Below, piece by piece: positions 20,539 through 42,026 of a stretch of 64,000 nt of DNA. Where the stretch lies: IMG/VR virus record IMGVR_UViG_3300032896_000001, positions 1-64,000 of that record; one strand, given 5' to 3'. This DNA comes from a virus. The notes under the pieces are model-generated. The model did no database searches, was not told where the DNA came from, and worked only from the letters and a program-made list of their open reading frames with translations. The translations under genes and the position numbers were made by a program. Position 1 is the first letter of the stretch. Each line of letters starts with the position of its first letter.

Positions 20539-21141
20539 ATGGCCATACGAACGCGGGACGGGAACGGCCGCTACATCCGCACCATCAAGACGACGAAGCG
20601 CGACTTCGACGCGGCCGAGCTCCGGGCGCGCGGCTGGAGGCTCGAGCGGATCGCCGCGGAGCTCGGCTTCGCGTCCCGGGGTCACGTCCACGACGCGGTC
20701 AGCCGCGCGCTCCGCGAAACCCCCTACGACGGCGCCGAGGACGACAAGCTCCTCGACCTGATGCGCATCGACCGGCTCATCGAGCAGGCGTGGGACGTCA
20801 TGCACCGCAAGCACGTGACCGTCTCCCACGGGAAGATCATCACCCGCCAGGTCGGCGTCGAGTGCGATGAGGACGGCATTGAGCGCCTTGACCTCGACGG
20901 CAAGACGATCCCCGTCTACGAGGACGTCCTGGACGACGCGCCGGTCCTCGCCGCAATCCGGGAGATCCGGTCCCTGGTCAAGCGCCGCGCGGAGATCATC
21001 GGCTACGACGCCCCCCTGAAGACGCGCATCGAGGTCATCACCGAGGACGCGGTCGACGCGGAGTGCGAAAGGCTGCTCGCCGAGATCGCGGAGCGGGAGA
21101 AGCGTGAAGCCGCCGCCGCTGATACTGGCGCCGCCGGGTAA
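20539..21141 (+). CDS. Putative terminase small subunit
   Basis: A 200-residue protein. The N-terminal HTH (DAAELRARGWRLERIAAELG then HVHDAVSRAL) would bind the packaging site; the helical C-terminal part (about 65-190) would oligomerise. It is directly before TerL and overlaps it by 38 bases. The identification is by position and domain order; sequence families of small terminases diverge widely. Confidence 0.7.
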   Translation: MAIRTRDGNGRYIRTIKTTKRDFDAAELRARGWRLERIAAELGFASRGHVHDAVSRALRETPYDGAEDDKLLDLMRIDRLIEQAWDVMHRKHVTVSHGKIITRQVGVECDEDGIERLDLDGKTIPVYEDVLDDAPVLAAIREIRSLVKRRAEIIGYDAPLKTRIEVITEDAVDAECERLLAEIAEREKREAAAADTGAAG

Positions 21142-22792
21142 AGTCCGCAGGCTCGCCGAGCTCCGCGCCCGCAGGCGCCAGCTGGCCGAGCGGTCCCGCC
21201 GCTCCTGGGCCACGCCGGGGGAGCTCCAGAAGGCGATCGACCCGTCGACAGTCCAGACCCCCGCGCTGGACCTGATCGACGAGGCGATCGTCTGGGCGTA
21301 CAGGACGCCCGGGGCGCGCCTCGCCGTGTCCATCGGGCCGCAGGAGGGCAAGAGCACCCGCGTGACCCGCGGGGGGTCGCTGTGGAAGCTGACCGACGAC
21401 CCGGAGACCCGGATCGGGATCGTCTCCTACGCGCAGGCGCTCGCCGACGGGTTCAGCCGCGACATCCGGAACGCGATCGCCTCCAACAACGGCGACGACG
21501 GGACCCTTGACCTCGGCCTCCGGATCGCCTCCGACTACGGGTCGGCGCGACGCTGGCAGCTCGACGGCCACCGCGGCGGCGTCGTGGCCGCCGGCGTCGG
21601 CTCGGGCCTGAACGGCCGGCCGCTCGACTGCATGGTGGTGGACGACCCGTTCGCCGACGCGGTCCAGGCCGGGTCGGCCTACTACCGCGACCGGGTGTGG
21701 GACTGGTGGCAGACGGTCGGGTCGACGCGACTCGCGCCGGACGGGCCGGTCCTGGTCATCTGCACGAGATGGCACGAGGACGACTTCGTCGGACGGCTCG
21801 TCAAGGCCGAGGACGGCCACCGCTGGCGGGTCGTCAACATCCCGGCCATCGCCGACCACGACCCGGCTCAGGGGCAGTCCGACCCGCTCGGCCGGGAGCC
21901 CGGCGAGTGGCTGACGTCCGCCCGGGGCCGCACGCCGGCCCAGTGGGAGCAGATCCGCATCCAGGCCGGGTCCCGCGCTTTCGCCGCCCTGTACCAGGGC
22001 AGGCCCTCGCCCGACCAGGGCAACGTCTGGCAGCGCCAGTGGTGGCGCTACTACCCGTCGCCCCTGTGGTCCCAGCATCCGGAAGCGCCCGGCGCATGGC
22101 TGGTCGACGCCGACGAGGTACTGATCTCAGTCGACGCCGCTTTCAAGGACACGAAGTCGAGTGACTTCGTGGTCATGCAGGTTTGGGCGCGGCGCGGCGC
22201 GACCGCGTACCTGCTCGACCAGGTCCGCAAGCGGCTGACGTTCACCGAGACCCTGACCGCGTTCACCGCCTTGTGCGCGAAGTGGCCGCAGGCGACCCGG
22301 AAGCTGGTGGAGGACAAGGCCAACGGCACGGCGATCATCGACTCGCTGAAGTCGAAGATCCCCGGCCTGAAGCCTGTGAACCCGACCGACTCCAAGTACG
22401 GGCGGGCGGCGGCGGTCGCCCCGGTGATCGAGTCCGGGAACGTGCTGCTGCCCGATCCGCTGATCGCGCTGTTCGACACGGGGGAACTGGTCACGGAAGC
22501 GGCCCAGTTCCCGAACGGCGCGAACGATGACATGGTCGACGCGACCTCCCAGGCTCTCGCGGAGATGTTCTTGGACGGGACCGGCGGGGCGGCGTGGATT
22601 GCCTGGATCAAGCGCAAGGTCGAGGCCCAGGCTGCAGCGGAGCACGGTGATCGGCCTGGCCCGGAACCGCAATCGGAAGGCGCGAAGACGCCCGATCCTG
22701 AACCGGAAATCCCGGCCGCCCCCCTCAGTGACGCGGAACGCAGGCGGCAGGCCCGCAATGAGATGTACCGCCAGCAGCAGGAGCGCCAATGA
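21104..22792 (+). CDS. terL: Terminase large subunit
   Basis: A 562-residue packaging ATPase-nuclease. Walker A GPQEGKST is near 77-84, Walker B CMVVDDPF near 175-182, and TRWHEDD the coupling motif. The RNase-H-like nuclease has acidic residues in ISVDAAFKD (about 341-349), VEDKANG and GANDDMVDA. It cuts and pumps phage DNA through the portal. GTG start inside the end of the previous gene. The C-terminal 60 residues are hydrophilic and extend beyond the usual length. Confidence 0.96.
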   Translation: MKPPPLILAPPGKVRRLAELRARRRQLAERSRRSWATPGELQKAIDPSTVQTPALDLIDEAIVWAYRTPGARLAVSIGPQEGKSTRVTRGGSLWKLTDDPETRIGIVSYAQALADGFSRDIRNAIASNNGDDGTLDLGLRIASDYGSARRWQLDGHRGGVVAAGVGSGLNGRPLDCMVVDDPFADAVQAGSAYYRDRVWDWWQTVGSTRLAPDGPVLVICTRWHEDDFVGRLVKAEDGHRWRVVNIPAIADHDPAQGQSDPLGREPGEWLTSARGRTPAQWEQIRIQAGSRAFAALYQGRPSPDQGNVWQRQWWRYYPSPLWSQHPEAPGAWLVDADEVLISVDAAFKDTKSSDFVVMQVWARRGATAYLLDQVRKRLTFTETLTAFTALCAKWPQATRKLVEDKANGTAIIDSLKSKIPGLKPVNPTDSKYGRAAAVAPVIESGNVLLPDPLIALFDTGELVTEAAQFPNGANDDMVDATSQALAEMFLDGTGGAAWIAWIKRKVEAQAAAEHGDRPGPEPQSEGAKTPDPEPEIPAAPLSDAERRRQARNEMYRQQQERQ

Positions 22793-24586: not shown

Positions 24587-27500
24587 ATGAGCGTCCGATC
24601 CCGCGCCGCCTTCGCCACGGCCCCGACCGTCGAGGTCGCCAAGGTCTTCGGCCCGGGGGTTCCGCCGGCGATCCAGGCGGCTGAGGCCGAGGCGCAGATG
24701 ACGCCGACGAGCCCGTTCGGCCCCGGCACCCCGATCGGCCCGTACGACGGGTTCTCGCGGCAGCCGCGCAGCCAGAATTTCGTCACCGGGGTCAACATCG
24801 CGACCCGGCCGCGGACGCATGAGCGGGTCAGCTTCGAGACGCTCAAGGGCCTCATCGACGCTTATGACATTGCATCTATTGCGATCTGGCATCGTATTGA
24901 CTCGATCCGCAGCCTGGATTGGCAGCTCATCGCGGCGCCGCATTTCCAGGGCAATGTGACCGACATTATCCCGCTCGGGGTCAAGGCGCTCAAGAAGCCG
25001 GACCGGATCAACTCGTTCAGCTCATGGCTGGCGAAGTGGCTTTTCGATGTTCTCGCCTATGACGCGGGGGCGCTTTACAGGCTCCGCAACCGGGCGGGCC
25101 GGTGCATCGGCCTCCTGCCGATTGACGGGACCTCGGTGGCACCGCTGCTCGATTACTGGGGCAACCCGCCGGGTGCCTTGAGCGCCCCGGGCGAGGTGCT
25201 TCCCGAGGCGTACGTCCAGTATGTCAACGGGCTGCCGTGGAACTGGCTGACGCGCGATGACCTGATCTACCAGCCGTTCCGGCCGCGCACCAACTCGCCG
25301 TACGGGCACGCGCCGCTCGAGTCGATAATTCTGAATGCAAACACCGATATTCGCTTTCAGCTTTTTTTCCTTCAAAGATTCACCGAGGGGAATATCCCGG
25401 AGGCGTTCGCGGCCGCCCCCGAGACGTGGTCGCCGGATCAGATAGAGCAATTCCAGGAATACTGGGATGGCTTTATGTACGGCGATCAGTCGCGGAAGCA
25501 CCAGATTCGGTGGATGCCGGGCGGGTCGAAATTCGCGTGGTCCAATGAGAAGGACTTCAGCGACACGTTCTCGCTGTTCCTGATGCGGAAGACTCTCGCC
25601 GCGTATCACACGGTCCCGGCCGACATCGGATTCACGGAAAATGTAAACAAATCGTCCGGGGAATCGCAGGCGGACGTTCAGCACCGCGTCGGCGAACTGC
25701 CCCTCGACGCCTACGTCGAGGCCGTCCTGACGGACTTCCTGCAAGACGACCTCGGCCTGCCGCTCCAGTTCGAGTTCGACAAGGGCGAAGAACAGGACGA
25801 CCGGCTCGCGGTCGCGCAGGCCGACGAGATCTACATGCGCAACGCCGTCATCGGCTCCAGCGAGATCCGGGAGATGCGGTTCGGCCTCCCCGAGCCCGAC
25901 GGGCAGGTCGTCCCCCGCGGGTTCTTCACCGAGCGGTCCGGGCTCATCCCGATCAACTCGGTGCTCGCCGTGGCAGGGCCGATCGACCCCGCGACCGCCG
26001 CGCCCGAGCCGGGCGCCCCGCTGCCCCACACCGTGTTCGGGGGCGTCGAGGGCGTCCTGCCGAACCCGCCGATCAAGGTCCCGAGCCTCGCCGAGCAGGA
26101 GTACGGCCCGGCGGCGATGCCCCCTGCGCCGCCCCCTCAGCCGAAGATGACCGCCGCCGACGCCACGCCCGAGCTGGCCACCGGGGCGGTCTCCAAGGAA
26201 GGCGAGGGAGCGGGAGGGAACGTCACCGGGGGCATCACGACGGCGACGGGCCTGTACTCCTACGACCTCCAGGGCCAGGACGACGAGGACGGCCCGGTTG
26301 ATCAGGCGGCGGTCGCGAAGGAGATGCAGGCGTTCCGGCGGTTCGCGAAGGCGCGCCGCAGGGACGGGGAATGGCGGGACTTCGAGTTCCGGGCGGTCCC
26401 CGCAGGCAGGGCGCGGCAGCTGAACGCCGAGGGCTTCACCGCCGCCCGCAAGGCGGCCGTGCCCGGTCTCACGTCCCGCTCCGGCATGATCTCCCTCGAC
26501 CTGCCGCCGGGAACGCTCAGCCCGGTACCGGGCGGCGTGGACGACTTCCACGTGACCGTCGTGTACCTCGGCAAGGACGTGGACGACGACGCGTTCGCCG
26601 CAGTCTGCGAGCGGGCGCGCCAGGCCGCCGCCCTGGTGCCCGGCCCGCTTCAGGGCACGGTCTCCGGCGTGGGCGCGTTCCCTCCGTCGGACTCGAGCGA
26701 CGGCAAGGTGCCCGCGTGGGCCGCCGTCGGCATCCCCGGCGCGGAAGCCCTGCGGAACGCGCTCGCCGACCTGTCTGCGAGCGAGCACAAGGACTGGACG
26801 CCGCACGTCACCCTCGCCTACCTCGACCCGGGCGACCCGCTGCCGGCCCCGCTGGAGCCGGTGCCGGTGACGTTCGCGTGCCTGTCGGTGCACCGCGGCG
26901 ACCAGGTGGAGCTGTTCCCGTTCGGCGGCGATGACGTGGCCAAGGCGGCGAGCACGATCCCAAAAGCGCCGACGGGGACCGGTGACGCCGCCCCCGCCTG
27001 GCACGGTTGGACTCTCGACGGGAAGACCGCCGCGCACTGGGCCCCGAAGGTCCGCGACTCGGTTAAGGCGGCGGTCCCGAGGGCGAAGGCCCGGGACATG
27101 GGCCGCGACTATCTCGCCGACCACCCGGATCAGGACGGCGGGGCGCCGGACAAGCGGGACCGGAACAAGGGTGCCGCGGCGTGGGTGGCCGCGTGGCTCG
27201 CACGGCACGGGATCACTCTCGTCCCGTCGGCGGTGGCCGAGGCGATCGCCGTGGACGGCTACGCGATCGGCGCCGTCTCCGCTCAGCATCAGGTCACCGG
27301 GGAGCGCCCGGCGGCGCAGAAGCCGGGCGACACCGACCGGGCGCTCGAGGCGGTCGGCGCGGCCGGGCTCCTCGCCGCCCTCGCCGCGGCGATGCGCGGG
27401 GAGAACGGCGCCCCGGCGGCCGAGGCGGTCGCCGACGGGATTGCCCGCGGGTACGGGAACGCCCTCGCGATCATCCTCGCAGGGACCGACGCCGACTGGG

Positions 27501-27829
27501 CGGACAGCCAGGACACGCTCGACGAGCTCGGGGACATGCTCTCCGAAGCGCTCTACGACGAGGACACCGCCGTCACGCTCGTCGGGACGCAGATCAACAT
27601 CTGGACCGGCTTGTCCGCGCACGAGTACTACATGGCGAACAGCGTGGCGTGGATTAGATGGCAAACGGAAGAGGACGGGCGCGTCTGCCCGCGCTGCGGC
27701 GAGAACGAGGACGCAGGCCCGGTGCTGACGGGCCAGCCGTTTCCTGATGGCCACACCTCGACACCGGGCCACGACCGGTGTCGCTGTGCGATCCTGCCGG
27801 CTTCCCCGCCGGGCGTGGCGCTGTCATGA
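24587..27829 (+). CDS. Portal protein fused to 2H phosphoesterase and MuF-like domains
   Basis: At 1,080 residues this is about twice a normal portal. Residues 60-480 are the portal (GRCIGLLPIDGTSVAPLLDY, VQYVNGLPWNWLTRDDLIY, DIGFTENVNKSSGESQADVQ). After a Pro-rich linker (500-560), residues 600-790 carry two HxT motifs, DDFHVTVVYLG at His655 and PHVTLAYL at His740, the signature of 2H phosphoesterases (LigT, 2-5A and anti-CBASS Acb1 relatives). Residues 985-1080 resemble the Mu gpF C-terminus: WIRWQTEEDGRVCPRCGENE then HDRCRCAILP. A GGGGAGGG site precedes the ATG. The fusion places an enzyme in each portal subunit. A local AT-rich patch lies at 25318-25385. Confidence 0.88.
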   Translation: MSVRSRAAFATAPTVEVAKVFGPGVPPAIQAAEAEAQMTPTSPFGPGTPIGPYDGFSRQPRSQNFVTGVNIATRPRTHERVSFETLKGLIDAYDIASIAIWHRIDSIRSLDWQLIAAPHFQGNVTDIIPLGVKALKKPDRINSFSSWLAKWLFDVLAYDAGALYRLRNRAGRCIGLLPIDGTSVAPLLDYWGNPPGALSAPGEVLPEAYVQYVNGLPWNWLTRDDLIYQPFRPRTNSPYGHAPLESIILNANTDIRFQLFFLQRFTEGNIPEAFAAAPETWSPDQIEQFQEYWDGFMYGDQSRKHQIRWMPGGSKFAWSNEKDFSDTFSLFLMRKTLAAYHTVPADIGFTENVNKSSGESQADVQHRVGELPLDAYVEAVLTDFLQDDLGLPLQFEFDKGEEQDDRLAVAQADEIYMRNAVIGSSEIREMRFGLPEPDGQVVPRGFFTERSGLIPINSVLAVAGPIDPATAAPEPGAPLPHTVFGGVEGVLPNPPIKVPSLAEQEYGPAAMPPAPPPQPKMTAADATPELATGAVSKEGEGAGGNVTGGITTATGLYSYDLQGQDDEDGPVDQAAVAKEMQAFRRFAKARRRDGEWRDFEFRAVPAGRARQLNAEGFTAARKAAVPGLTSRSGMISLDLPPGTLSPVPGGVDDFHVTVVYLGKDVDDDAFAAVCERARQAAALVPGPLQGTVSGVGAFPPSDSSDGKVPAWAAVGIPGAEALRNALADLSASEHKDWTPHVTLAYLDPGDPLPAPLEPVPVTFACLSVHRGDQVELFPFGGDDVAKAASTIPKAPTGTGDAAPAWHGWTLDGKTAAHWAPKVRDSVKAAVPRAKARDMGRDYLADHPDQDGGAPDKRDRNKGAAAWVAAWLARHGITLVPSAVAEAIAVDGYAIGAVSAQHQVTGERPAAQKPGDTDRALEAVGAAGLLAALAAAMRGENGAPAAEAVADGIARGYGNALAIILAGTDADWADSQDTLDELGDMLSEALYDEDTAVTLVGTQINIWTGLSAHEYYMANSVAWIRWQTEEDGRVCPRCGENEDAGPVLTGQPFPDGHTSTPGHDRCRCAILPASPPGVALS

Positions 27830-28084
27830 GGCGGGCTTGCGCGGCCTGCCGCCGCCGGCTCCCTGCCCGGGGAGCGAGTCCTTCCACCGCCTGATCTCGT
27901 CCATGCGGCCGGGGAGCCAGCCGGGGACGGCGCGATCGTCGCCCTCGTCGTCGCCGATCCAGACGTCCGGCTCGGGGAACGGCGTGGGCGTGTCCTTCCA
28001 GCGGTTGCGCAGGGTGCCGACGAGGTGGCGGGAGCCGCCGAGTTGGCGGCTGATCGCGGCCTGGCTGAGGTAGCGGGTTGCCAT
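27824..28084 (-). CDS. HTH-like accessory protein, reverse strand
   Basis: An 86-residue protein; residues 3-30 (RYLSQAAISRQLGGSRHLVG) look like an HTH and the rest is acidic then basic. Five bases separate it from the upstream minus-strand gene, so the two form an operon with the promoter at 28375-28403. Confidence 0.6.
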   Translation of the reverse strand: MATRYLSQAAISRQLGGSRHLVGTLRNRWKDTPTPFPEPDVWIGDDEGDDRAVPGWLPGRMDEIRRWKDSLPGQGAGGGRPRKPAS

Positions 28085-28089
28085 CGCGG

Positions 28090-28341
28090 TTACCGGGGGG
28101 CGATGACGCCGGGGATGCCAGGGCCGGCCAGGAGGGTGAACTGGGCGAGGCCGTCGCTGCGGTCGCTCACGGCCCAGGTGTTCGGGCCGGTGCTTGCGAC
28201 GGCGGCGGGGCGCGTGGTCACGGGCCGCAGGGCGGCGGGCTTCGCGGTCTGCATGGCGCGGAACTTCGCGCGGGCGGCCTGCTCGGCGTCGCTCTGGCGG
28301 CCGTTCATCAGGTTCGCGATCCAGGTCTCGTAGCTCTCCAC
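28090..28341 (-). CDS. Small hypothetical protein, first gene of reverse cassette
   Basis: An 83-residue protein with a helical N-terminus (ESYETWIANLMNGRQSDAEQ) and an Ala/Pro-rich end. GTG start with an upstream AAGGGG site. No family recognised. Confidence 0.58.
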   Translation of the reverse strand: MESYETWIANLMNGRQSDAEQAARAKFRAMQTAKPAALRPVTTRPAAVASTGPNTWAVSDRSDGLAQFTLLAGPGIPGVIAPR

Positions 28342-28374
28342 CGGTTTCCCCTTACCTCGTTTGCTTATGTCTCA

Positions 28375-28403
28375 AGGTTATCGCGGGGAACATCGCCTGT
28401 CAA
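28375..28403 (-). promoter_or_regulatory. Near-consensus promoter of the reverse cassette
   Basis: On the minus strand TTGACA (28403-28398), 17 bases, TAACCT (28380-28375); the expected start point is about 27 bases before the GTG at 28341. A second TGACA lies just upstream (GTGACAAGTGTTGACA), a possible operator. Confidence 0.75.
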
Positions 28404-28467
28404 CACTTGTCACGAAGTTTATTTCCCACCACCGCCACCGCCACCAACCACCACCAGGAGTTCCGCC

Positions 28468-28770
28468 ATGCCCGACAACCCGCCGCCCGTCTACAAGTGG
28501 GCCGTGACGCTCGCCAACGCCACGCTCGGCGGGTCGGCCTTCGAGATCGAGGCCGCCTACCCCGTCATCGAGGACACCGGGCACATGGTCCTCAAGGACG
28601 CCGGCCACAAGCCCGTGTTCTCAGCCGAGCCGGGGCTCGGGTGCACCTTCGAACGGCGGGCGCGGGTCACCGACCCCGCAGCCGACAACCCGCCGCCCGG
28701 CACCGGCTACTGGCCGTGCGGGTGCCCGGTCGAGTCCCTCGAGGCGAAGCGCGACGGGACGCGGCTCTAG
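28468..28770 (+). CDS. Hypothetical protein with Cys-rich end
   Basis: A 100-residue beta-rich protein (YKWAVTLANATLGGSAFEIE) with CGCP near the C-terminus. An AGGAG site lies 8 bases before the ATG. Preceded by a run of CCACC repeats (28427-28456). Function unknown. Confidence 0.6.
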   Translation: MPDNPPPVYKWAVTLANATLGGSAFEIEAAYPVIEDTGHMVLKDAGHKPVFSAEPGLGCTFERRARVTDPAADNPPPGTGYWPCGCPVESLEAKRDGTRL

Positions 28771-28774
28771 CCGT

Positions 28775-29413
28775 TCACGGCTCGCGAGGCGCGGGGAACT
28801 GCGTGTCGCACGTCAGGCACAGCTGGGCGACTACCTCGCCCGCAAGCGACTGCACCGGCTCTACCTCAAGGTGCCTGCACCGGGCCTTGACCCACCGGTC
28901 GGGAACGCCGATGCCGCGGACGACCTTCCATTCCCAGCGCGGGTCAAGCTCGACCGCGCCTGAGTCGGGGCGCGTGACGGCGGGCTTCGCCGCGACCGTC
29001 TTGGGCGGCGTCACCGCGACAGCGCGCGCTTCCGTCCTGCCCGGCCGTTCCGCCGTCCCTCCGGCCGCGAGGTACGCCCGGTTCGCGATCGCGTCCCACT
29101 GCCGCTGACGAAGCGCCTCGACCGCCTCCGCGAGCTCCTCGGCGCGCGTCTTCGGTGGCCCGGCGTCGCCCTCCGCCAGCATCGCCTCAGCCCGCAGGCG
29201 GCCGAGCTTCCGCCGCTCCCAGACGGCCAGCGCGGCCATGAGCGCGAGCAGGATGCCCGGCTTCCAGGAGGCGCCGGGCGCGGCCGCCAGGACGAGGCAG
29301 AAGGCGAAGGCCCCGCCGACCACGCCGCCCGTCGCGAACATCCGCAGCGCCCGGTGGCGCGCGATGCCCCGCCGCAGATCAACCTCTGCCTGCTCCTGCT
29401 CTTTGACGGCCAC
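28775..29413 (-). CDS. Membrane protein with Cys-containing C-terminus
   Basis: A 212-residue protein. Two hydrophobic segments (about 24-45 and 50-65) are followed by a charged coiled region (90-120) and a C-terminal domain ending CRHLEVEPVQSLAGEVVAQL then CLTC, a possible metal site. GTG start. Single-gene reverse cassette between plus-strand genes; role unknown. Confidence 0.6.
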   Translation of the reverse strand: MAVKEQEQAEVDLRRGIARHRALRMFATGGVVGGAFAFCLVLAAAPGASWKPGILLALMAALAVWERRKLGRLRAEAMLAEGDAGPPKTRAEELAEAVEALRQRQWDAIANRAYLAAGGTAERPGRTEARAVAVTPPKTVAAKPAVTRPDSGAVELDPRWEWKVVRGIGVPDRWVKARCRHLEVEPVQSLAGEVVAQLCLTCDTQFPAPREP

Positions 29414-29453
29414 GTCCCCGATTGTCCCCGACGAAACCCGCGACAGGAGCGAA

Positions 29454-29735
29454 GTGGCCCTGACGAGGGTTTGCATTTTCTGCCTTGAGCCGCAGGCGGC
29501 ATGCGTGTGCCCTGACACCGAGGCGCTCGCCGTCGTCCCGTCCTGCTGCGACCTCCACGGGCGCAACTGCGAGCCTCCCGGCGACCTCTGCTGCGACGAG
29601 TGCACCGAGGAGCATCACGGGGCTTGGGTCGACGGCCGCCAGGTCCGCCGGTTCGGTCACCCGCCCGGGGAGACATGCTCGGCACCGGACGCGCCGCCGC
29701 CGCCCGGGATCAAGCCCGACTGGAGACAAGCGTGA
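29454..29735 (+). CDS. Cys-rich small protein
   Basis: A 93-residue protein with nine or more Cys (CIFCLEPQAACVC; CCDLHGRNC; CCDEC) and several His, implying two or three zinc sites. An ACAGGAG site precedes the GTG. It ends in a GTGA overlap with the next gene. Function unknown. Confidence 0.62.
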   Translation: MALTRVCIFCLEPQAACVCPDTEALAVVPSCCDLHGRNCEPPGDLCCDECTEEHHGAWVDGRQVRRFGHPPGETCSAPDAPPPPGIKPDWRQA

Positions 29736-30151
29736 CCGCCGACGGCGACAGCCTCTACATGATCGACGACTGCGAGACGCCGCGCGCGGCCGCCGGACTC
29801 GAGGCGCTCCGCGCGCCGGCCGAGGGCGCGCAGTACCGGGGCGCGATCGTCATCGAGTGGCCGAGGGCCGCCCCGCACGGGGTCGGCGCGATCATCGGGC
29901 GCATGGTCTCGGTCTACGACGCGTTCACCGGCAGCGAGCCCGGGCCGAAGCCGATCTCGACGGTCTCGGAGATCGCCCTCCGCGTGTCGGTGGACGAGAT
30001 CGTGACTGCGGACCTGACCATGTTCGCCGACGAGGCGGGCAACCCGATCCTCGACGGGGAGCCCGTCCCGGACGGCGACGGCTTCCGGACTGGCGTGTTC
30101 CCGTTCCTCGTCAGCGAGATGAGGGTGAGGCACGCCGATGGCGTCCGGTGA
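29732..30151 (+). CDS. Hypothetical beta-rich protein
   Basis: A 139-residue protein with a central strand-rich region (IIGRMVSVYDAFTGSEPGPK, then ISTVSEIALRVSVDEIVTAD). The GTG gives a GTGA overlap with the Cys-rich gene. It overlaps the next gene by 14 bases. Common type among actinophage structural-region accessories, but no name assigned. Confidence 0.62.
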   Translation: MTADGDSLYMIDDCETPRAAAGLEALRAPAEGAQYRGAIVIEWPRAAPHGVGAIIGRMVSVYDAFTGSEPGPKPISTVSEIALRVSVDEIVTADLTMFADEAGNPILDGEPVPDGDGFRTGVFPFLVSEMRVRHADGVR

Positions 30152-30407
30152 GTACCAGCCGGCGGCACCTCTCGGCGACGGCGCGGCCTGCTTCTACCGG
30201 CGCCGGAACCGGGCGGGGGAGTGCGTCGGCCTGACGCCCCTGGACGGCAGGACGATCTTCCCGCTGCGCGACCGCCGGGGCAACGCGCCCGAAGGCGACG
30301 GGCCTGCTTACGTTCAGATGGTCAACGGCCTGCCGTGGAACTGGCTGACCCGCGATGATCTTGTCGTCCGGTACCCGGCCGGGCCGGAATGCGGGACGGT
30401 AGCGTGA
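30138..30407 (+). CDS. Free-standing portal-segment protein
   Basis: An 89-residue protein corresponding to one internal stretch of the portal (about residues 160-240): FYRRRNRAGECVGLTPLDGR aligns with LYRLRNRAGRCIGLLPIDGT, and VQMVNGLPWNWLTRDDLVV with VQYVNGLPWNWLTRDDLIY. The intervening length differs slightly. It has its own ATG and lies in an operon, so it is probably expressed. It could be a relic of a duplicated portal or a protein that mimics a portal surface. Confidence 0.7.
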   Translation: MASGEYQPAAPLGDGAACFYRRRNRAGECVGLTPLDGRTIFPLRDRRGNAPEGDGPAYVQMVNGLPWNWLTRDDLVVRYPAGPECGTVA

Positions 30408-30438
30408 GCGGCATGAGCGAGACGGCGGAAGGCCGCTA

Positions 30439-30759
30439 GTGTCCGTGAGCCTGTGGGATTTCCGCCACTGCGACCAGTGCCGACTCGGAGGATGCATCGT
30501 CATGTCCTGCCCGGGCGGAAACTGCCCTTGCGCCGGGAAGCACCCTGATGCGCACGGCGCCGAGGCCGCGACCCTAGAGCCGTTCCTCGCCTTCACCGAC
30601 GAGCACGGCGAGTTCCTCAGCCGCCTCTTCGGCCCGGCCGCCGATGAGCCCTCATCCGGGCCGCCCTACACCCACGTGCACCGGCTCCCGGAGACCGAGG
30701 AGGAGATGGCGGCCGCGCCGCTGCTTCCCTCGCACACGATCACCAGGGAGAGCGAGTGA
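30439..30759 (+). CDS. Hypothetical protein with N-terminal Cys cluster
   Basis: A 106-residue protein with CDQCRLGGC and CPGGNCPC in the first 32 residues (a possible metal-binding site), then an acidic region. GTG start; ATGA overlap with the next gene. Not recognised. Confidence 0.58.
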   Translation: MSVSLWDFRHCDQCRLGGCIVMSCPGGNCPCAGKHPDAHGAEAATLEPFLAFTDEHGEFLSRLFGPAADEPSSGPPYTHVHRLPETEEEMAAAPLLPSHTITRESE

Positions 30760-31400
30760 CGTCCGGCTGGGCCTGCCCGCAGTGCTCCAACGTGATGGCG
30801 CCGTTCATCGTCTCCTGTCCGTTCTGCACGAAGGCGGCGGGAAGCGCCGTTCCGGGCTTCAGGGCGGGCGACCGGGCATGGCCGAAGGCGGACGGCCCGA
30901 TGGCCCTCCAGCGTGCGCCACAGACCGTCCTGGCGTCCCGCCGCGACCCGGTGTTCGGGGACTGGCTGTGGCTTGACGGCGGCTCCGGCCACTTCGGGTC
31001 ATGGTCGGCCGGGCACTGGACGACGGACGAGCCGGGCGACGCGGAGAAAGCCGAGATCACGGAGCGCGCACGGCGGCGCGCCGAGGAGAACGACCGCATG
31101 ACCCCGAGGCGGTCGCACTCGCTCACGTTCGGCGGCGGCCTCGCGGGCATCAGCGAGCCGGGCGACCGATCCCCTGGCATGCCCCCGCCGGGATACGTCG
31201 GGCTGCCCCTTCCCTCCGCCCTGACGCCCGGAGCCGAGTACCGCCTCATGGTGGGCGGCAACTGGGCCGAGATACTCCCCGACTTGGAGTGCCGCATGGT
31301 CCGCGCCATCTGGGCGTGCGCCCCTGACGGCAAGCCGGTCGGCGTCGACCTTGAGTTCCGCCGCACCCCGCAGGCCGCCGGCGACAGTAAGGGCGATTGA
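30756..31400 (+). CDS. Hypothetical protein with N-terminal zinc ribbon
   Basis: A 214-residue protein. CPQC...CPFC at residues 7-24 forms a zinc ribbon; the remainder is Trp-rich and hydrophilic, including a charged helix (about 90-112). GTGA overlap with the previous gene. No known function. Confidence 0.62.
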   Translation: MTSGWACPQCSNVMAPFIVSCPFCTKAAGSAVPGFRAGDRAWPKADGPMALQRAPQTVLASRRDPVFGDWLWLDGGSGHFGSWSAGHWTTDEPGDAEKAEITERARRRAEENDRMTPRRSHSLTFGGGLAGISEPGDRSPGMPPPGYVGLPLPSALTPGAEYRLMVGGNWAEILPDLECRMVRAIWACAPDGKPVGVDLEFRRTPQAAGDSKGD

Positions 31401-32831: not shown

Positions 32832-32917
32832 GGCTCCTCCAGGTGGCGGCCAGGCGGCGGGCATGTGCACGAGCAGGTAATCACGCCAGGCGGCGTAGGC
32901 GAAGACGTCGTGCCCAC

Positions 32918-33109: not shown

Positions 33110-33279
33110 TCGGTGCCCCACTCGTACCACCAGGCTTCGGCGCAGTCATCGTGGCAGAACATGCGCCCGTCGTAGCCGACCTCCGGGTTAATGCTCCCGC
33201 ACCAGGCGCAGGTTTCGTCGTGGTCGTCGTCCAGGGTGTCGTCTGCGCCGAGGTAGTTCCCCCGGCCGGCCGCGCTCAC
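33106..33279 (-). CDS. Small Cys/Trp-rich protein, copy 2
   Basis: 57 residues, 51 identical to the protein at 674-847, with both Cys motifs kept. GTG start in a GTGA overlap. Differences cluster at the N-terminus. Confidence 0.72.
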   Translation of the reverse strand: MSAAGRGNYLGADDTLDDDHDETCAWCGSINPEVGYDGRMFCHDDCAEAWWYEWGTE

Positions 33280-36113: not shown

Positions 36114-37361
36114 TCAGGACCACAGCGGCATCTGCCCCCTCGTCGGCCGCCTCGCCGCACGCCCGAACTGCTTGAACTTCGGCCGCCCCTCCCTGGTGCC
36201 CCTCTGGGCCGGGCCGAGCAGATCGGCGAGCTCAAGCCCTGACGCCTCGCGCACGCGGGCGAGGATGAGCTGCCCGACGTTCCGCGCGGCCTTCACATCG
36301 CACTCGGCAAGCCGCACGATCGTCCATCCCTCGGCGCGCATGCGGGCGTCCCGCTTCGCGTCCTTGACAGCGCGGACCTTGTGCCAGAAGTCGCCGTCCG
36401 CCTCGATGGCTAGCTTGTGCTTCGGCACAGCGAAGTCGATCGACCAGCGGAGGAACGGGTACTCCTGCGCGAAGCCGACGCCCAGCAATTCGAGCGCAAC
36501 CCGGACGCTCGCCTCCAGCTGCGTCTCGCCCATGAACTGGCGAACGCAGGAGACCGAGCAGAACCGCCTCTTCACGTCACTCGCATGCGTCCGGAATTCC
36601 TTACCGCAGTTGTGGCACGCCATCATGAGCGGCGGCCGGCGGCACTCCTCGGAGCAGAAGCGCCTGTGCCAGCCCTCGCGGGTGTAGTCGGGTAGCCGCT
36701 TGCCGCAACGCTCGCAATCGACGTACACAGTATTCACGTTCTGACAGGCCCACCCGCATGTCTGGTAGCGGTCCTCGTTCGACCGCGCGATTGTGAAGTC
36801 CCTGCCGCACACAGGGCACGTCTTGGTGATCGTCCGGCCCCCGCTGCGGCACCTCATGGAGCAGAAGGGCCAGCCGCTCGTTATCACGTAGTCCCTGGTG
36901 AAGGACTTGCCACATCTCGCGCAGTCGTAGGCGTAGACCACGGGCTCCGGGTTAAGCCGAAGGTGCCGGGGATTCACGCACCTGTTGTGCGGGTCGCTGC
37001 CGCCGGAAGTCGGACAGTCCTTTGGACAGCACGTGTGGCCGACCTCCCGCCCCTCGGGGATGGGTCCGATGAAGAACTCATACGCCCATCGGTGCGCCTT
37101 GCGCTGAGGCGGCTTGCCGTCCTTGACGTAGATGTTCGCGTGACCGCTTTTCGGGTGAATCGAGTTCGTGTACAGCCAGCAGGCGTTCGGCCCGCCGGAT
37201 CTGTCGGAGTAGCCGAGGAACCTGACGATCACGGGCACATAGGTGTGCGGCCTGAAGGCCGCAACCTGCGGCAGCAACGGCTCGATGTAGTGCTCCAGGC
37301 ACAGGCCGTCGATTATCGGCCCGTCGATGCAACCAGCACCCGGGCATGTAGATTCGAGCAC
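36114..37361 (-). CDS. HNH - zinc finger array - Vsr-like endonuclease fusion
   Basis: A 415-residue protein. Residues 6-25 hold a Cys knuckle; 60-135 an HNH domain (CWLYTN, HRWAYEFFIGPIPEGREVGH, RCVNPRHL) in which the usual Asp before the first catalytic His is Gly; 145-275 four tandem CxxCG...C...C zinc fingers; 282-372 a Vsr/DUF559-like PD-(D/E)XK domain with WSIDFAVPKHKLAIEADGDF-WH and GWTIVRL. The last part matches the EDxHD homing-nuclease relatives of Vsr. GGAAGGAG precedes the GTG. Likely a homing endonuclease; the zinc fingers would set target choice. It borders the abnormal tRNA-like gene. Confidence 0.82.
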   Translation of the reverse strand: MLESTCPGAGCIDGPIIDGLCLEHYIEPLLPQVAAFRPHTYVPVIVRFLGYSDRSGGPNACWLYTNSIHPKSGHANIYVKDGKPPQRKAHRWAYEFFIGPIPEGREVGHTCCPKDCPTSGGSDPHNRCVNPRHLRLNPEPVVYAYDCARCGKSFTRDYVITSGWPFCSMRCRSGGRTITKTCPVCGRDFTIARSNEDRYQTCGWACQNVNTVYVDCERCGKRLPDYTREGWHRRFCSEECRRPPLMMACHNCGKEFRTHASDVKRRFCSVSCVRQFMGETQLEASVRVALELLGVGFAQEYPFLRWSIDFAVPKHKLAIEADGDFWHKVRAVKDAKRDARMRAEGWTIVRLAECDVKAARNVGQLILARVREASGLELADLLGPAQRGTREGRPKFKQFGRAARRPTRGQMPLWS

Positions 37362-37448
37362 GGCGACTCCTTCCAGTCGTCCAAGCCCCGGGCCGGGACA
37401 ACGAATGCGCCACATTCGCCGGTCGTGGGGGTTTCGCGTGCTAATTCG

Positions 37449-37454
37449 ATTATA
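37449..37454 (-). promoter_or_regulatory. Consensus -10 element in a palindrome
   Basis: TATAAT on the minus strand lies inside AATTCG-7-CGAATT (37443-37461), about 90 bases before the GTG of the fusion nuclease. The -35 region is weak, so an activator or extended recognition may be needed. Local AT content is far above the surroundings. Confidence 0.5.
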
Positions 37455-37518
37455 CCGAATTGAACTGGCCTATAAAGCCCGATCAGCGCTTTCGCCGCCG
37501 AATTGCGGGAGGTGCCGA

Positions 37519-38175
37519 ATGGGCGATGCGAGCCTGCTTGGCCCCTTCGGCGAGACCGACTGCCGGCAGCCGCACATGTACGCCCGGGACATCCGCTCGG
37601 CCGCGGGGAACTGCGTGTGCAAGGCGGCACCCTGGGATGCCCGGCATGAGGCGATCGCCCCGGGCCTGGGTGCCTCTGAGCTCCGCGCGGCGATCCGGAA
37701 GTGCATCGGCGGGGAGCCCGTCCGGGAGTTCTCCGAGGAGATCCAGCGCGGCGTGGTCCGGCAGCTGATCCCGGTCGCCAAGAGCGCCGAGAAGCAATTT
37801 CTGCTCGGCCTGGCCTATGTCGCCGGCCGTGATCCGCGTATCCGCAAGGGCATGGACGGCGGCCGTGATTTTCTCGACCCCGAAGACCTCGAGCGCGCCT
37901 GCTGGTCCTTCCTCCCGGGTGGCGGCCAGGTCGGCATCGGGCACATCGACGGCACTCTCGGGCACCTGACCGTGACCGAGAACTACATCTACCGCGGCCC
38001 GGACTGGGAGCAGCCGTCCGGCTTGGTCCTGAAGTCCGGCATGGCGTGGCTTATCGGGGGCCTGTGTGATGACCATGCCTGGCGGATGGCCAAGGCCGGG
38101 CATGTGAACGGGTTCTCCCCCCAAGGCGGGGGACGGCGGCTCAAGGTTCCGGCCATGGCGGGAGGTCTGTCGTGA
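37519..38175 (+). CDS. XkdF-like capsid maturation protease
   Basis: A 218-residue protein. From about residue 85 it follows the phage XkdF pattern: RGVVRQLIPVAKSAEKQFLL, then FLDPEDLERACWSFL, QVGIGHIDGTLGHLTVTENY and AGHVNGFSPQGGG, with the His of GIGHID as a possible catalytic residue. XkdF-type proteins are putative serine proteases that process the head. AGGTG lies before the ATG. First gene of the head operon after the reverse block; GTGA overlap with the scaffold-like gene. Confidence 0.72.
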   Translation: MGDASLLGPFGETDCRQPHMYARDIRSAAGNCVCKAAPWDARHEAIAPGLGASELRAAIRKCIGGEPVREFSEEIQRGVVRQLIPVAKSAEKQFLLGLAYVAGRDPRIRKGMDGGRDFLDPEDLERACWSFLPGGGQVGIGHIDGTLGHLTVTENYIYRGPDWEQPSGLVLKSGMAWLIGGLCDDHAWRMAKAGHVNGFSPQGGGRRLKVPAMAGGLS

Positions 38176-40445
38176 CAATGCTCCCCGACATCGACGACGA
38201 CGAGTTCACCCAGCTCACCGACGTGAACACCCCCAGGGCGGACATGGTCGGCCAGCCTGCCCACGGGTGGCCCGGCTGGCTGGTGATGAAACAGGACGCA
38301 GAGGGCGCGCTGCTCGACCCCGAGTTCGTCCGGGACCTGCTGTCAAAGAACACCGAACAGGAGGCCCCCGTGCCCCAAGCGACCGACGCGGGAGAGACGA
38401 CCCTCCCTAACGGCATCACCCTCAAGGGCTCCCCGGCTGCCATGGCCGCGTTCATCCACGCCTCGTCGGTCCGCAAGCAGGAGCAGCGGGCCGAGGACGA
38501 GCCGGGAGACGGCGACGTCGCCAAGGCCGACATGAGCGCGAAGAGCATCAACGACCTCGACGACTCCGACTTCGCGTACATCGAGCCGGGCGGCAAGAAG
38601 GACGACGAGGGCAAGACGACGCCCCGGTCGCTGCGGCACTTCCCGGTCAACGACGCCGCGCACGTCCGCAACGCCCTGTCCCGCGCCCCGCAGTCCCCGT
38701 TCGGCGAGAAGGCCATGCCCAAGATCAAGGCCCGCGCGAAGGCGCTCGGCATCGACGTAGCCAAGGAGGCCGGCGTGGCCGAGCCAGTGACCAAGGACAT
38801 GATGGACGCCGCCGGGGACGCGATGCCCCTCGATGACGGCGAGGACGGCCTCGACCCGACGGTCCCCCTCGCGATGCCGGAGGAGATGGCCCCGGGCGAC
38901 CCGACCGACCCCGGGTCCCCCGCGTGGGAGTCGGTCGACGCGGCGACGGCGATGAAGTGGACGACGATCCTCGCCCGCGCCGGCGCCGCGATCTCGATGA
39001 TGGCGGACCGGGAGATGCTCGAGGCCGCCAGCGCCGACCCGTCCGACGCGGAGAACGCGATGGACCTGCAGGACGTGCGCTGCGCGATCGACTACGCGAT
39101 CAGCGTCCTGGCCCCGTTCGCCGTGTCCGAGCAGTCCGAGGCTGACTGCGGGGCGATGGAGATGGAGGCGATCGGGAAGGCCGCCGCCGCCCTCGAGGCG
39201 TCCCCGCTGGCCGAGATCGAGGGCCTGGCCGCGATCCGGAAGGCGGGCCGGGTCCTGTCGTCCGCGAACGAGGCGAAGATCCGGGACGCCGCGAAGGCGC
39301 TCGGCGACGTCCTCGCGTCGCTCCCGTCCGCACCCGCGGCCGACACGGTCGCCAAGGAGAAGGAGGCCGTCATGGCCAGCCACACCATCGACGTGCGCGG
39401 CCGGGAGATGGCGCAGGGAGCCTCCGCGGCGACTCTCGCCAAGCCCGGCCCCGTCGTCAAGACCGCCATGCCCCCCGAGGACCAGGCCCGGAACACGGGC
39501 CCTGTGAACGCGGGCGGCACGACCGGCATGGGCCAGCCCCGCACGACCGGCCCCGACTCGGCGCTGCCCGGCGACGGCCCGCAGGAGGCCCGCCCCGGCG
39601 ACGCCCCCGGCCGCGCCGTCGTCAAGGGCGCCCTCCGGGTCGCCGTGTACGACCAGGGCGGCTCCCTCGCCGGGATCGTCGACCCCGGCCGTATCGTCGA
39701 GAAGGTCGCCAAGGCCGACTCCGACGCCCCCCCGAAGACCGCGATGCAGGCGGTCTTCGACGAGGACGGCAACCTCGTCGGCATCGTCGACCCCGCCGAC
39801 ATCACCCCGGTAGCCGGGGCGGGCGGCGGGTCGTCCGACAGCGACGGCGACGGGGACGGCATGCAGGCCGGCCCCGCCGCCGCAGCGGCCCCCGCGGACG
39901 GCGACATGACCCCGCAGCCCCCCGCCGACGCCGGCACCCCCGCCGACGCCGTGGGCAAGGCCGCGGACGAAAACGTGGACAGCCCTGGCACCGAAGCGCT
40001 CGACAGCATCATCGCGAAGGCAGTGGCAGCGGCAGCCGGCACGTTCGCCCCGGCACAGGAGGTCGTCGCCAGGCAGGCGGCCGACCTCGCCAGGGCGCTC
40101 GAAGAGGTCGAGCTGCTCAAGGCCCGCGTCGAGGTGGTGGAGGAGCACCCGGCCGCGCCGGGCGTGTTCACCAACGGGGCGCAGCCGCCCACGACAGCCG
40201 ACGGGCGCCCGCTCCCGCCGCCCGGCCAGCTCCGCGGGCAGGACCAGGGCCGCAGCGCGCCCGGGCAGATCAACATCGCCAAGGCGATGGAGCGCCGCAA
40301 GGAGCTCTACACGGCCCCCGACGCGGCGACCCAGAACACGATCGCCAAGGAGATGCAGGGCGACGCCATCGGCGCCCTGCAGGCCATTCACGCGGCCGGG
40401 CCGTCCCCGGTCCGGCTGGCCCCGGCGGAACTCGCCGCCCAGTAG
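38172..40445 (+). CDS. Scaffold-like head protein with DUF6582-type segment
   Basis: A 757-residue acidic, Ala/Asp/Pro-rich protein. Residues 130-195 (DFAYIEPGGKKDDEGKTTPR, then SLRHFPVNDAAHVRNALSRA) match a DUF6582-like unit often attached to prohead proteases or scaffolds. Two similar short units, VAVYDQGGSLAGIVDPGRIV and QAVFDEDGNLVGIVDPADIT, sit near 490-540. A coiled coil (about 630-655) and a basic end follow. Order between protease and capsid implies a scaffold; the length is unusual. Confidence 0.62.
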   Translation: MTMLPDIDDDEFTQLTDVNTPRADMVGQPAHGWPGWLVMKQDAEGALLDPEFVRDLLSKNTEQEAPVPQATDAGETTLPNGITLKGSPAAMAAFIHASSVRKQEQRAEDEPGDGDVAKADMSAKSINDLDDSDFAYIEPGGKKDDEGKTTPRSLRHFPVNDAAHVRNALSRAPQSPFGEKAMPKIKARAKALGIDVAKEAGVAEPVTKDMMDAAGDAMPLDDGEDGLDPTVPLAMPEEMAPGDPTDPGSPAWESVDAATAMKWTTILARAGAAISMMADREMLEAASADPSDAENAMDLQDVRCAIDYAISVLAPFAVSEQSEADCGAMEMEAIGKAAAALEASPLAEIEGLAAIRKAGRVLSSANEAKIRDAAKALGDVLASLPSAPAADTVAKEKEAVMASHTIDVRGREMAQGASAATLAKPGPVVKTAMPPEDQARNTGPVNAGGTTGMGQPRTTGPDSALPGDGPQEARPGDAPGRAVVKGALRVAVYDQGGSLAGIVDPGRIVEKVAKADSDAPPKTAMQAVFDEDGNLVGIVDPADITPVAGAGGGSSDSDGDGDGMQAGPAAAAAPADGDMTPQPPADAGTPADAVGKAADENVDSPGTEALDSIIAKAVAAAAGTFAPAQEVVARQAADLARALEEVELLKARVEVVEEHPAAPGVFTNGAQPPTTADGRPLPPPGQLRGQDQGRSAPGQINIAKAMERRKELYTAPDAATQNTIAKEMQGDAIGALQAIHAAGPSPVRLAPAELAAQ

Positions 40446-40504: not shown

Positions 40505-40532
40505 TTGCATGCCCCCCGAAAGGAGGCAAGCG

Positions 40533-42026
40533 ATGACCGCACCAGCGCAGAACATCAGCGAGGAGACCCTCGCGGAGATCCAGAAGGCCCAGACGCCGGG
40601 CATCTACGAGTCGACCGGGATCTGGTCGTACGACCTGTCCGGCCTCGTGTCCCTCGTCCCGGTCGTGACCCCGTTCCGGGATCTCGTCGCACGCGAGAAG
40701 GTTACTGACGGTAACCCATTTGCCGTGTGGCGCGCATTGATGAACGTCAATAGCTCCCAGCTAGACCCGGCAATGGGCATCGACTACGCCGCGAACGAAG
40801 CCACGTTCAGTGAGCAGGACTTCCAGGCGAAGTACGCCCCAACCGGCTACGCCGGCCTCGTCACCCAGGACGCGTTCGACTTCGCGACCGGCTACGCGGA
40901 CCCCTACGCCGTCGCGACCTTCCAGACCCTCAACCAGGTGCTGATCGGCGACGACCGCAAGCAACTCGGCGCGCAGTCCTTCGCCCTCGCCGCCGCCGCC
41001 GCCCCGTCGATGACCACCGCCACCACCGGCGGCACCATCGCCCTCAACACCACCGTCTACATCGGCGTCGCGGCCCGCACCGGCTCCGGCTTCTACTACG
41101 GCTCCGGCAACAGCCAGGGCAACAGCAACAGCGTCGAGACCGGCGGCAGCACCTCCACCAACACCGTCACCGGCACCGTCACCGCCATCCGCGGCGCCGT
41201 CTGCTACGACTGGTTCCAGAGCAGCAACGGCACCGTCTGGTACTACTACACGACGACCACCGTCAACTCGGTCACGATGACCAAGGTCATCACCACCAAC
41301 CAGGCGCTCCCCACCACCATCCCCGACCTGTCCGCCAACTGGAACGGCGTCGCCGGCGTCCCCACCTACAACGCGGCGGCTGACAACGGCTCCGCGAACG
41401 CCGACGACTACGACGGGTTCCTCGCCAGCCTCTCCGGCGACTACTCCTCCACCGGCCAGTGGGTCAAGCCCGGCACCGGCACCGCCAACCCGTCCCAGTG
41501 GACCTCCCTCAACGGCGCCGCCCTCACCCTCGGCGGCGGCACCGTCAACGAGATCGAGGAATACCTCTTCCTCACCCTCTGGAACGCCGTCAAGTGCTCG
41601 CCCACCGCGATCATGATGAACGCAGCCCAGGCGCAGGAAGTCGCCAACCTCATCCTCGCCAGCGGCAGCGCGACCACCTTCCTCAACACCGACGCCTCGG
41701 GCCGCATCAGCGTCACCGCCGGCGGCCGCGTCGGGGAGATCGTCAACGCCCCCGCCGGCGGCGCCACCGTCCCCATCGAGGTCCACGTCTCGCTGCCCCC
41801 GGGCACCATCATCGCGAGGACCGACCGGGTGCCCTTCCCGCAGGCCAACATCAGCAACGTCCTCGCGATGCGCTGCCTCCGCGACACCGCCCAGTTCGAC
41901 TACGGCATCGCGCGAGTCGCCGGGACCAAGGGCGGGGGGCCCCGCAAAGAGTTCGAGATAAGGTCAGTCAGTGCCCTGGCGAACCGCGCGCCGGTAGCCA
42001 TGGCTGTGCTGTCAAACGTCTCCTAG
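40533..42026 (+). CDS. Major capsid protein
   Basis: A 494-residue protein in the capsid position with a GAAAGGAGG site, the strongest in the region. N-terminal helix, a conserved-looking P-loop region (TPFRDLVAREKVTDGNPFAV) and C-terminal beta-rich A-domain (VHVSLPPGTIIARTDRVPFP, DTAQFDYGIARV) fit an HK97 fold. Residues about 145-300 are a Gly/Ser/Thr/Tyr-rich insertion, likely a surface domain. An AT-rich codon patch occurs at 40697-40790. Processing by the upstream protease is probable. Confidence 0.85.
   Translation: MTAPAQNISEETLAEIQKAQTPGIYESTGIWSYDLSGLVSLVPVVTPFRDLVAREKVTDGNPFAVWRALMNVNSSQLDPAMGIDYAANEATFSEQDFQAKYAPTGYAGLVTQDAFDFATGYADPYAVATFQTLNQVLIGDDRKQLGAQSFALAAAAAPSMTTATTGGTIALNTTVYIGVAARTGSGFYYGSGNSQGNSNSVETGGSTSTNTVTGTVTAIRGAVCYDWFQSSNGTVWYYYTTTTVNSVTMTKVITTNQALPTTIPDLSANWNGVAGVPTYNAAADNGSANADDYDGFLASLSGDYSSTGQWVKPGTGTANPSQWTSLNGAALTLGGGTVNEIEEYLFLTLWNAVKCSPTAIMMNAAQAQEVANLILASGSATTFLNTDASGRISVTAGGRVGEIVNAPAGGATVPIEVHVSLPPGTIIARTDRVPFPQANISNVLAMRCLRDTAQFDYGIARVAGTKGGGPRKEFEIRSVSALANRAPVAMAVLSNVS

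What the first reader, a model, noticed from the sequence alone, without database searches (positions are those of the whole stretch)
24587..27829. Portal protein carrying a 2H phosphoesterase and a MuF-like domain in one chain
Seen: a portal-type N-terminal half, then two HxT motifs 85 residues apart (His655, His740), then a Cys/His MuF-like C-terminus, all in one 1,080-residue frame. Known: 2H phosphoesterases cut 2'-5' or cyclic phosphodiesters; phage Acb1 uses this fold to destroy CBASS signals, and some portal-linked MuF proteins carry toxins or enzymes. Inference: each virion would bring about 12 copies of the enzyme, available at injection as a pre-made anti-defence or RNA-repair activity.
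Basis: partly seen in the sequence, partly recalled or inferred. Interest (0 to 1): 0.85.

Follow-up and report, generated by a model that had tools for sequence, protein, structure and literature searches.

The report
Portal gene with swappable enzyme and frameshift
A soil phage's DNA-gate (portal) protein carries a built-in nucleotide-cutting enzyme that relatives replace with a different enzyme, and a seven-base ribosome-slipping signal, kept in almost every relative checked, sits right after the enzyme and predicts that the gene makes two proteins instead of one.

Summary
One 1,080-aa frame (24587-27829) joins a portal, a 2H phosphoesterase (His655, His740) and a MuF-like C-terminus. The predicted fold matches LigT and CPDase; Acb1 ranks lower. 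Both HxT motifs are invariant in all 13 aligned homologues. 2H-portal/MuF fusions and an anti-defence role were already proposed in print (PMC5512222, PMC9503650).

Relatives show more. (1) The 2H part is an exchangeable cassette. Among 88 relatives reading into the region, about three quarters carry a Nudix hydrolase there, one both, four neither. Cassette type changes at least 14 times on the portal tree; the nearest relative (92% identical portal) has Nudix. (2) At the cassette/MuF junction almost every relative keeps the slippery heptamer C CCA AAA (or G GGA AAA), here 26959-26965, including cultured phages Sonali and Mufasa8. Whichever frame holds MuF, the other stops within 3-27 codons, and the MuF frame has flipped at least 7 times. 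This predicts two products by -1 frameshifting, portal-enzyme and portal-enzyme-MuF; I found no report of it. (3) [VIL]xK[AED] motifs shared with the scaffold and capsid N-terminus flank the cassette, suggesting release by the XkdF protease.

Frameshift and sites are unproven experimentally; substrate unknown.

The parts
24587..27829 (+). portal - 2H phosphoesterase - MuF-like polyprotein gene, 0-frame product 1,080 aa
24761..25996 (+). portal core (aa 59-470)
   Evidence: PHROG 2662 6e-48; Pfam Phage_portal; 92% identical to L003
26189..26275 (+). linker: candidate protease site VSK|E and GITTATGLYSYDLQG, a copy of the N-arm motif of the major capsid protein (GIYESTGIWSYDLSG at 40509-42026)
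   Evidence: cleavage is inference
26441..26467 (+). start of the exchangeable cassette (AARK-AAVPG), candidate protease site
   Evidence: [VIL]xK[AED] present here in 51/55 relatives; the window copy (ARKA) is one residue off the motif
26480..26905 (+). 2H phosphoesterase domain (SGMISLDLP ... LSVHRGDQ)
   Evidence: PF13563; A2; model and Foldseek
26549..26557 (+). first HxT (His655-Val-Thr657)
26804..26812 (+). second HxT (His740-Val-Thr742)
26930..26956 (+). end of the cassette, VAK|A candidate protease site; AAGGCGG at 26942-26948 is a Shine-Dalgarno-like stretch 10 nt before the heptamer
   Evidence: confounded, since AAG GCG also encodes the KA motif
26959..26965 (+). slippery heptamer C CCA AAA (Pro792-Lys793)
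26983..26985 (+). TGA that ends the -1 frame; predicted short product about 799 aa (...IPK-SADGDR)
26960..27826 (+). MuF-like C-terminal part (289 aa) with CPRC...HDRCRC
   Evidence: A4; PF04233 in 11 of 15 homologues
21104..22792 (+). terminase large subunit
   Evidence: PF17289, PHROG 38 E 1e-98
37327..38175 (+). XkdF-type maturation protease (Peptidase_S78_2); the true start is inside this open frame
   Evidence: PF14550 1.4e-7
38172..40445 (+). scaffold-like protein rich in [VI]xK[AE] motifs
   Evidence: no family match
40509..42026 (+). probable major capsid protein, N-terminus EIQK|AQTPGIYESTGIWSYDLSG
   Evidence: aligned by eye with annotated Sonali and Mufasa8 capsid proteins; PHROG 13692 4e-44, function not assigned

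Best explanation
The gene encodes a portal polyprotein that carries a nucleotide-processing enzyme cassette as cargo. The cassette is a 2H phosphoesterase here and a Nudix hydrolase in most relatives. Translation yields two nested chains. In the window's phage the normal frame gives portal-2H-MuF (1,080 aa). Ribosomes that slip by -1 on C CCA AAA give portal-2H without MuF (about 799 aa). In relatives that have MuF in the -1 frame the roles are reversed. The slip sets the ratio of MuF-bearing to MuF-less portal subunits, which fits a 12-subunit portal ring and the 1-2 MuF copies per capsid reported for SPP1. The enzyme lies upstream of the slip, so every chain carries it. During maturation the XkdF protease probably cuts at [VI]xK|[AE] sites around the cassette and frees the enzyme inside the head, from where it could enter the cell with the DNA and act on a nucleotide signal or NAD/ADP-ribose-type metabolite. 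Shown from sequence: domains, cassette exchange, conserved heptamer, flanking motifs. Inferred: slipping in vivo, cutting, ejection, substrate.
For: Heptamer: found in the portal frame at the cassette/MuF junction in 71 of 93 loci (63 CCCAAAA, 8 GGGAAAA). Of the other 22, 7 have it in the frame resumed after an insert; the rest end before the junction, lack MuF, or are real exceptions. Only two loci with a complete MuF (L025, L077) lack it, and so do those with MuF cut short or lost (L030, L057, L080). Pro is CCA in 4.8% and Lys AAA in 10% of codons of these genes. Amino acids of 13 kinds precede it, yet the third base before it always matches X. The heptamer is an island in variable flanks. 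Two products: with MuF in frame 0 the -1 frame stops after 3-27 codons (63 loci; sum 498 against a null mean of 5,801, 0 of 20,000 draws); with MuF in -1, frame 0 stops after 9-25 codons (8 loci). MuF frame flips at least 7 times on the portal tree. It is also in cultured phages Sonali and Mufasa8, in 24-27% identical portals with 2H after MuF, and in a second, 2H-led set. Cassette. HxT invariant. Flanking motif: 2 in 22,000 portal-core residues, but in 51/55, 51/55 and 49/55 loci at linker, cassette start and cassette end. MuF copy number: PMC5576092.
Against: No experiment. A downstream stimulatory structure is weak (fold z -0.76 against -0.20 for controls). The upstream Shine-Dalgarno-like signal is confounded with the KA motif. 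The loci are related, so counts are not independent, although 63 contexts stay mutually under 70% identical in the flanks. The 71 were selected by presence of the heptamer; the unselected statement is 78 of 80 loci with junction and MuF. Protease specificity is inferred from motif placement alone, and the window's own cassette-start site is one residue off. Nothing shows the enzyme in virions or its substrate.
Confidence: 0.6

Rival explanations
1. Already proposed general reading: a virion-borne 2H enzyme fused to portal/MuF that destroys nucleotide alarms of host defence (CBASS, type III CRISPR, Thoeris-like), working as an ordinary single translation product.
For: PMC5512222 section 20 and PMC9503650 section 21 propose it. 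The same 2H subfamily occurs in single chains with ADP-ribosyltransferases (L164, L180) and with Nudix (L157, L060), and the alternative cassette is a Nudix, which points to NAD/ADP-ribose or cyclic-nucleotide chemistry.
Against: It does not explain the conserved heptamer, the alternative-frame stops or the frame flips. The Acb1 model does not match. No substrate evidence.
Confidence: 0.4
2. RNA repair: the 2H domain trims 2',3'-cyclic phosphate ends of damaged RNA so that a ligase can rejoin them.
For: The fold is nearest to LigT/CPDase.
Against: No RtcB in the 105 kb record; the T4-type ligase search had no positive control. PMC5512222 notes that these 2H versions do not accompany RNA ligases. 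The alternative Nudix cassette does not fit.
Confidence: 0.12
3. The heptamer is conserved for another reason, such as a peptide motif (Pro-Lys) or a recombination site for cassette exchange.
For: It lies next to the cassette boundary, and cassettes are exchanged often.
Against: GGGAAAA replaces it with a different amino acid and the same slippery form, and the third base of the preceding codon follows along. It persists in loci with no cassette (L045, L051, L053, L079) and where 2H lies after MuF. Alternative-frame stops and frame flips are not explained.
Confidence: 0.07
4. The cassette is a structural or decoration domain without catalysis.
For: It is placed inside a structural protein, and four relatives lack it.
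Against: Both HxT motifs are invariant in 13 of 13. A strict Nudix-box pattern matches 60 of 69 Nudix cassettes, and 5 of the 9 misses are broken by an insert or a contig end. Two unrelated enzyme folds use the same slot.
Confidence: 0.08

Closest known systems
2H phosphoesterase-portal/MuF fusions of phages (polyvalent/NAD-ADPr surveys, PMC5512222, PMC9503650)
   Same: same domains in one chain; packaging and anti-signalling role proposed there
   Different: those texts, as far as read, do not describe exchange of 2H with Nudix in one slot, the slippery heptamer or the flanking motifs
Arthrobacter phages Sonali (gp3 'portal and MuF-like fusion protein') and Mufasa8 (gp3 'MutT/NUDIX hydrolase')
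   Same: homologous portal (42-45% identity), cassette slot, MuF and CCCAAAA at the junction
   Different: Nudix instead of 2H; annotated as a single product
dnaX-type and phage lambda G-GT programmed -1 frameshifting (general knowledge)
   Same: X XXY YYZ heptamer, nested products, nearby stop in one of the two frames
   Different: here in a portal-MuF gene, and which frame carries the long product flips between relatives
Acb1 anti-CBASS nuclease (7t27)
   Same: 2H fold, two HxT motifs, phage
   Different: rank 30 in fold search (E 4e-3), Pfam Acb1 E 0.25; Acb1 is a separate protein, not a portal domain
MuF polymorphic toxins (PMC5576092)
   Same: MuF module with enzymatic cargo; some relatives here carry a C-terminal ADP-ribosyltransferase (L027, L036)
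   Different: the cassette lies between portal and MuF, upstream of the slip

Membership tests
2H phosphoesterase superfamily (LigT/CPDase type) | two HxT/S motifs | tested here: met
   His655 and His740; invariant in 13 of 13
2H phosphoesterase superfamily (LigT/CPDase type) | 2H fold | tested here: met
   model pLDDT 83; 1iuh E 3e-6, drCPDase, LigT
2H phosphoesterase superfamily (LigT/CPDase type) | phosphodiesterase activity | not testable with these tools
   needs an assay
Acb1 anti-CBASS nuclease | match to the Acb1 family model | tested here: not met
   Pfam Acb1 E 0.25, 11.5 against a cut-off of 27 bits
Acb1 anti-CBASS nuclease | cleavage of cyclic oligonucleotides | not testable with these tools
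   needs an assay
Phage portal | portal family match and position next to terminase | tested here: met
   PHROG 2662 6e-48; Pfam 38.9 against 39.1 bits; terminase at 21104-22792
MuF | PF04233 match | tested here: met
   11 of 15 aligned homologues, best 4e-11; the window member alone is below threshold
Nudix hydrolase (alternative cassette) | family match and Nudix box | tested here: met
   PF00293 8.6e-16 (L003) and 7.5e-22 (L032); strict box pattern in 60 of 69
Programmed -1 frameshift gene | in-frame X XXY YYZ heptamer conserved as nucleotides | tested here: met
Programmed -1 frameshift gene | alternative frame gives a defined second product | tested here: met
   -1 stop after 3-27 codons, or 0 stop after 9-25 codons
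Programmed -1 frameshift gene | stimulatory downstream structure or upstream SD | tested here: inconclusive
   weak structure excess; SD-like excess confounded
Programmed -1 frameshift gene | two products in vivo | not testable with these tools
   needs mass spectrometry or a reporter

The most novel reading that the evidence does not exclude
A previously undescribed programmed -1 ribosomal frameshift in phage portal-MuF genes, conserved from cultured Arthrobacter phages to streptomycete prophages and soil phages. It makes two portal forms with and without MuF, with the default frame flipping repeatedly. The same chain carries an exchangeable 2H/Nudix enzyme that the maturation protease cuts free inside the head.
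Probability: 0.5. Interest if true: 0.82.

Novelty: new variant of a known kind. Interest (0 to 1): 0.72.

Why it matters
MuF is present at 1-2 copies in SPP1 whereas portals have 12 subunits (the 12 is general knowledge). A slip inside a fused portal-MuF gene would be a direct way to set such a ratio, testable in phages Sonali and Mufasa8 whose hosts are in culture. The exchange of two unrelated nucleotide-processing enzymes in one slot of a virion protein points to a common purpose early in infection and gives matched pairs (window/L003, L109/L110) for finding the substrate. The predicted cutting sites would explain how an enzyme fused to a portal could ever leave the capsid.

Tried and rejected
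Acb1 membership: Pfam E 0.25, lower fold rank. PDB sequence search with P0001 and with A2: no hit. RNA-repair context: RtcB not found; the T4-type RNA ligase search had no positive control, so it is uninformative. Tail-chaperone frameshift with the same heptamer in the window: none of this form between 44,000 and 52,500, and no joined CDS in Sonali or Mufasa8 tail regions. The bare heptamer count in the window is not unusual (2 against 1.3 expected), so its position and conservation carry the weight. Downstream structure is only a weak excess. PADLOC models: no match for P0001 or for the L027 C-terminal part; one weak match for the L003 Nudix. Literature searches for a frameshift in portal/MuF genes gave only tail-chaperone and unrelated cases among those inspected; absence in this open-licence library is not proof of novelty.

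Full report
What is there. The window is bases 1-64000 of a 105,095-base IMG/VR virus record with 70% GC. ORF 24587-27829 encodes one 1,080-residue chain: portal (PHROG 2662 6e-48), 2H phosphoesterase (PF13563, residues 655-754) and a MuF-like end. Terminase lies upstream (21104-22792). The XkdF protease, a scaffold-like protein and the probable major capsid protein lie downstream (37327-42026). The two HxT motifs are His655 and His740. The model of the 2H part has the 2H fold and matches 1iuh, drCPDase, E. coli LigT, rotavirus VP3 and coronavirus ns2, with Acb1 further down.

What is already known. 2H domains fused to MuF or portal domains, and the idea that they are packaged and counter nucleotide signalling, were published in 2017 and 2022 (PMC5512222, PMC9503650). 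The 2022 paper also lists Nudix domains fused to MuF and portal.

The cassette is exchangeable. I collected relatives by P0001, by a portal alignment (254 relatives, 80 kept; 6 bacterial genomes: four Streptomyces, Kitasatospora mediocidica, a Catenulispora MAG) and by the 2H alignment. Among 88 of 93 distinct loci with enough sequence past the portal, 68 carry Nudix in the slot, 13 carry 2H (one of them cut by the contig end), L060 has Nudix followed by 2H, four have nothing and two were not classed. On a tree of the portal core, cassette type changes at least 14 times; the window (2H) and L003 (Nudix) are sisters with full support, as are L109 (Nudix) and L110 (2H). DNA identity between window and L003 is 0.70-0.96 over aa 1-600, 0.31-0.57 over 601-810 and 0.93 over 811-840, so the exchange has sharp edges. 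Both HxT motifs are invariant in 13 aligned 2H cassettes, and a strict Nudix-box pattern matches 60 of 69 Nudix cassettes, 5 of the 9 misses being interrupted or cut copies. The same 2H subfamily is also found in chains with ADP-ribosyltransferases (L164, L180) and with Nudix (L157), which points to NAD/ADP-ribose or cyclic-nucleotide chemistry but does not fix a substrate.

A conserved slippery site. In several relatives MuF lies in the -1 frame, and the switch falls at a Pro-Lys. The DNA there is C CCA AAA, a classical X XXY YYZ heptamer. It occurs in the portal frame at this junction in 71 of 93 loci as CCCAAAA (63) or GGGAAAA (8), and in the resumed frame in seven more that are interrupted by inserts. 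Most of the remaining loci end before the junction. L025 and L077 have a full MuF without it; L030 and L057 have MuF cut to its end and L080 has no MuF, and these lack it too. CCA is 4.8% of Pro codons and AAA 10% of Lys codons in these genes. Residues of 13 kinds precede it, yet the third base always completes the triplet. Around the heptamer the sequence is variable. With MuF in frame 0 (63 loci, window included) the -1 frame ends after 3-27 codons; the summed distance is 498 against 5,801 expected from the same genes, never reached in 20,000 draws. With MuF in -1 (8 loci) frame 0 ends after 9-25 codons. The MuF frame changes at least 7 times on the tree. The site is present in cultured Arthrobacter phages Sonali and Mufasa8, where the gene is annotated as one product, and in portals of 24-27% identity where the 2H part follows MuF. 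A second set found through the 2H domain adds 16 sites with the long product in frame 0 and -1 stops after 3-20 codons, and further cases with the long product in -1. My reading is that both a MuF-less and a MuF-bearing chain are selected. The sums and draws treat related loci as separate, so they are supportive rather than a formal probability.

Why two chains. [quoted passage not shown] A slip inside a fused gene would set such a ratio. This step is inference.

Possible release of the enzyme. A domain of a portal cannot be ejected unless cut. The motif [VIL]xK[AED] is nearly absent from the portal core (2 in 22,000 residues) and from the cassette bodies (6 in 7,537), but lies in the linker (51/55 loci), at the cassette start (51/55) and at its end (49/55). 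The scaffold-like protein is rich in it (read by eye), and all 17 distinct capsid-protein N-termini found carry IxKAQT, the window's being EIQKAQTPG. The portal linker also repeats the capsid N-arm motif (GITTATGLYSYDL against GIYESTGIWSYDL). The simplest reading is that the XkdF protease cuts after Lys at these sites and frees the enzyme in the prohead. The window's own cassette-start site (AARKAA) is one residue off the motif. Cleavage is not shown.

Limits. No experiment was possible. Stimulatory structure is weak and the Shine-Dalgarno-like excess upstream is confounded with the KA motif. The literature library holds open-licence papers only.

Noticed in passing
L007:4280-5545; L031:5831-6877; L020 downstream of 4701: Intein-like in-frame inserts at different sites of the portal (L007, L031) and MuF (L020) parts of this gene, plus HNH/LAGLIDADG-like reading frames in inserts in some Nudix cassettes (L020, another locus). 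Family scan of the L007 and L031 inserts gave only a weak match to an intein-bearing ATPase model, so 'intein' rests on reading the ends.
   Followed up: partly
L004:9569-10293; L013:7484-8600; L107: Inserts of 0.7-1.2 kb inside or beside the cassette whose coding pattern looks like a reverse-strand gene; nature unknown.
   Followed up: no
window 30138-30407: Second portal fragment, 60% identical to P0001 residues 159-232, between the portal gene and the protease.
   Followed up: no
window 27830-37800: About 10 kb of mixed-strand small ORFs separate the portal gene from the XkdF protease; in many relatives the two are 20-50 bases apart.
   Followed up: partly
L027:2907-4517; L036:2873-4588; L021:10317-11936: C-terminal cargo after MuF: ADP-ribosyltransferase (PF03496 1.4e-18, 5e-21) and a PI3/4-kinase-like domain (weak, 6e-4).
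   Followed up: partly
L007, L012, L015, L018, L027, L072, L075: A short Cys-containing insert CPCGTPVVYDEMNGWQHADGS..ESVSDKM between cassette and slip site, shared by 2H and Nudix versions; looks like a small zinc-binding module.
   Followed up: no
L180 (ORF 1460-4474 and upstream), L135: CCCAAAA with a 0-frame stop 3-7 codons later and a long -1 frame (936 and 602 codons); in L180 that frame appears to be the ORF with Arr-type ADP-ribosyltransferase and 2H. Suggests the frameshift also occurs in more distant head genes.
   Followed up: partly
window 486-698 (-) and 32918-33130 (-): Two near-identical small ORFs (VVRVG.RMT.DIDNDPYDGDD...) 32 kb apart on the same record.
   Followed up: no
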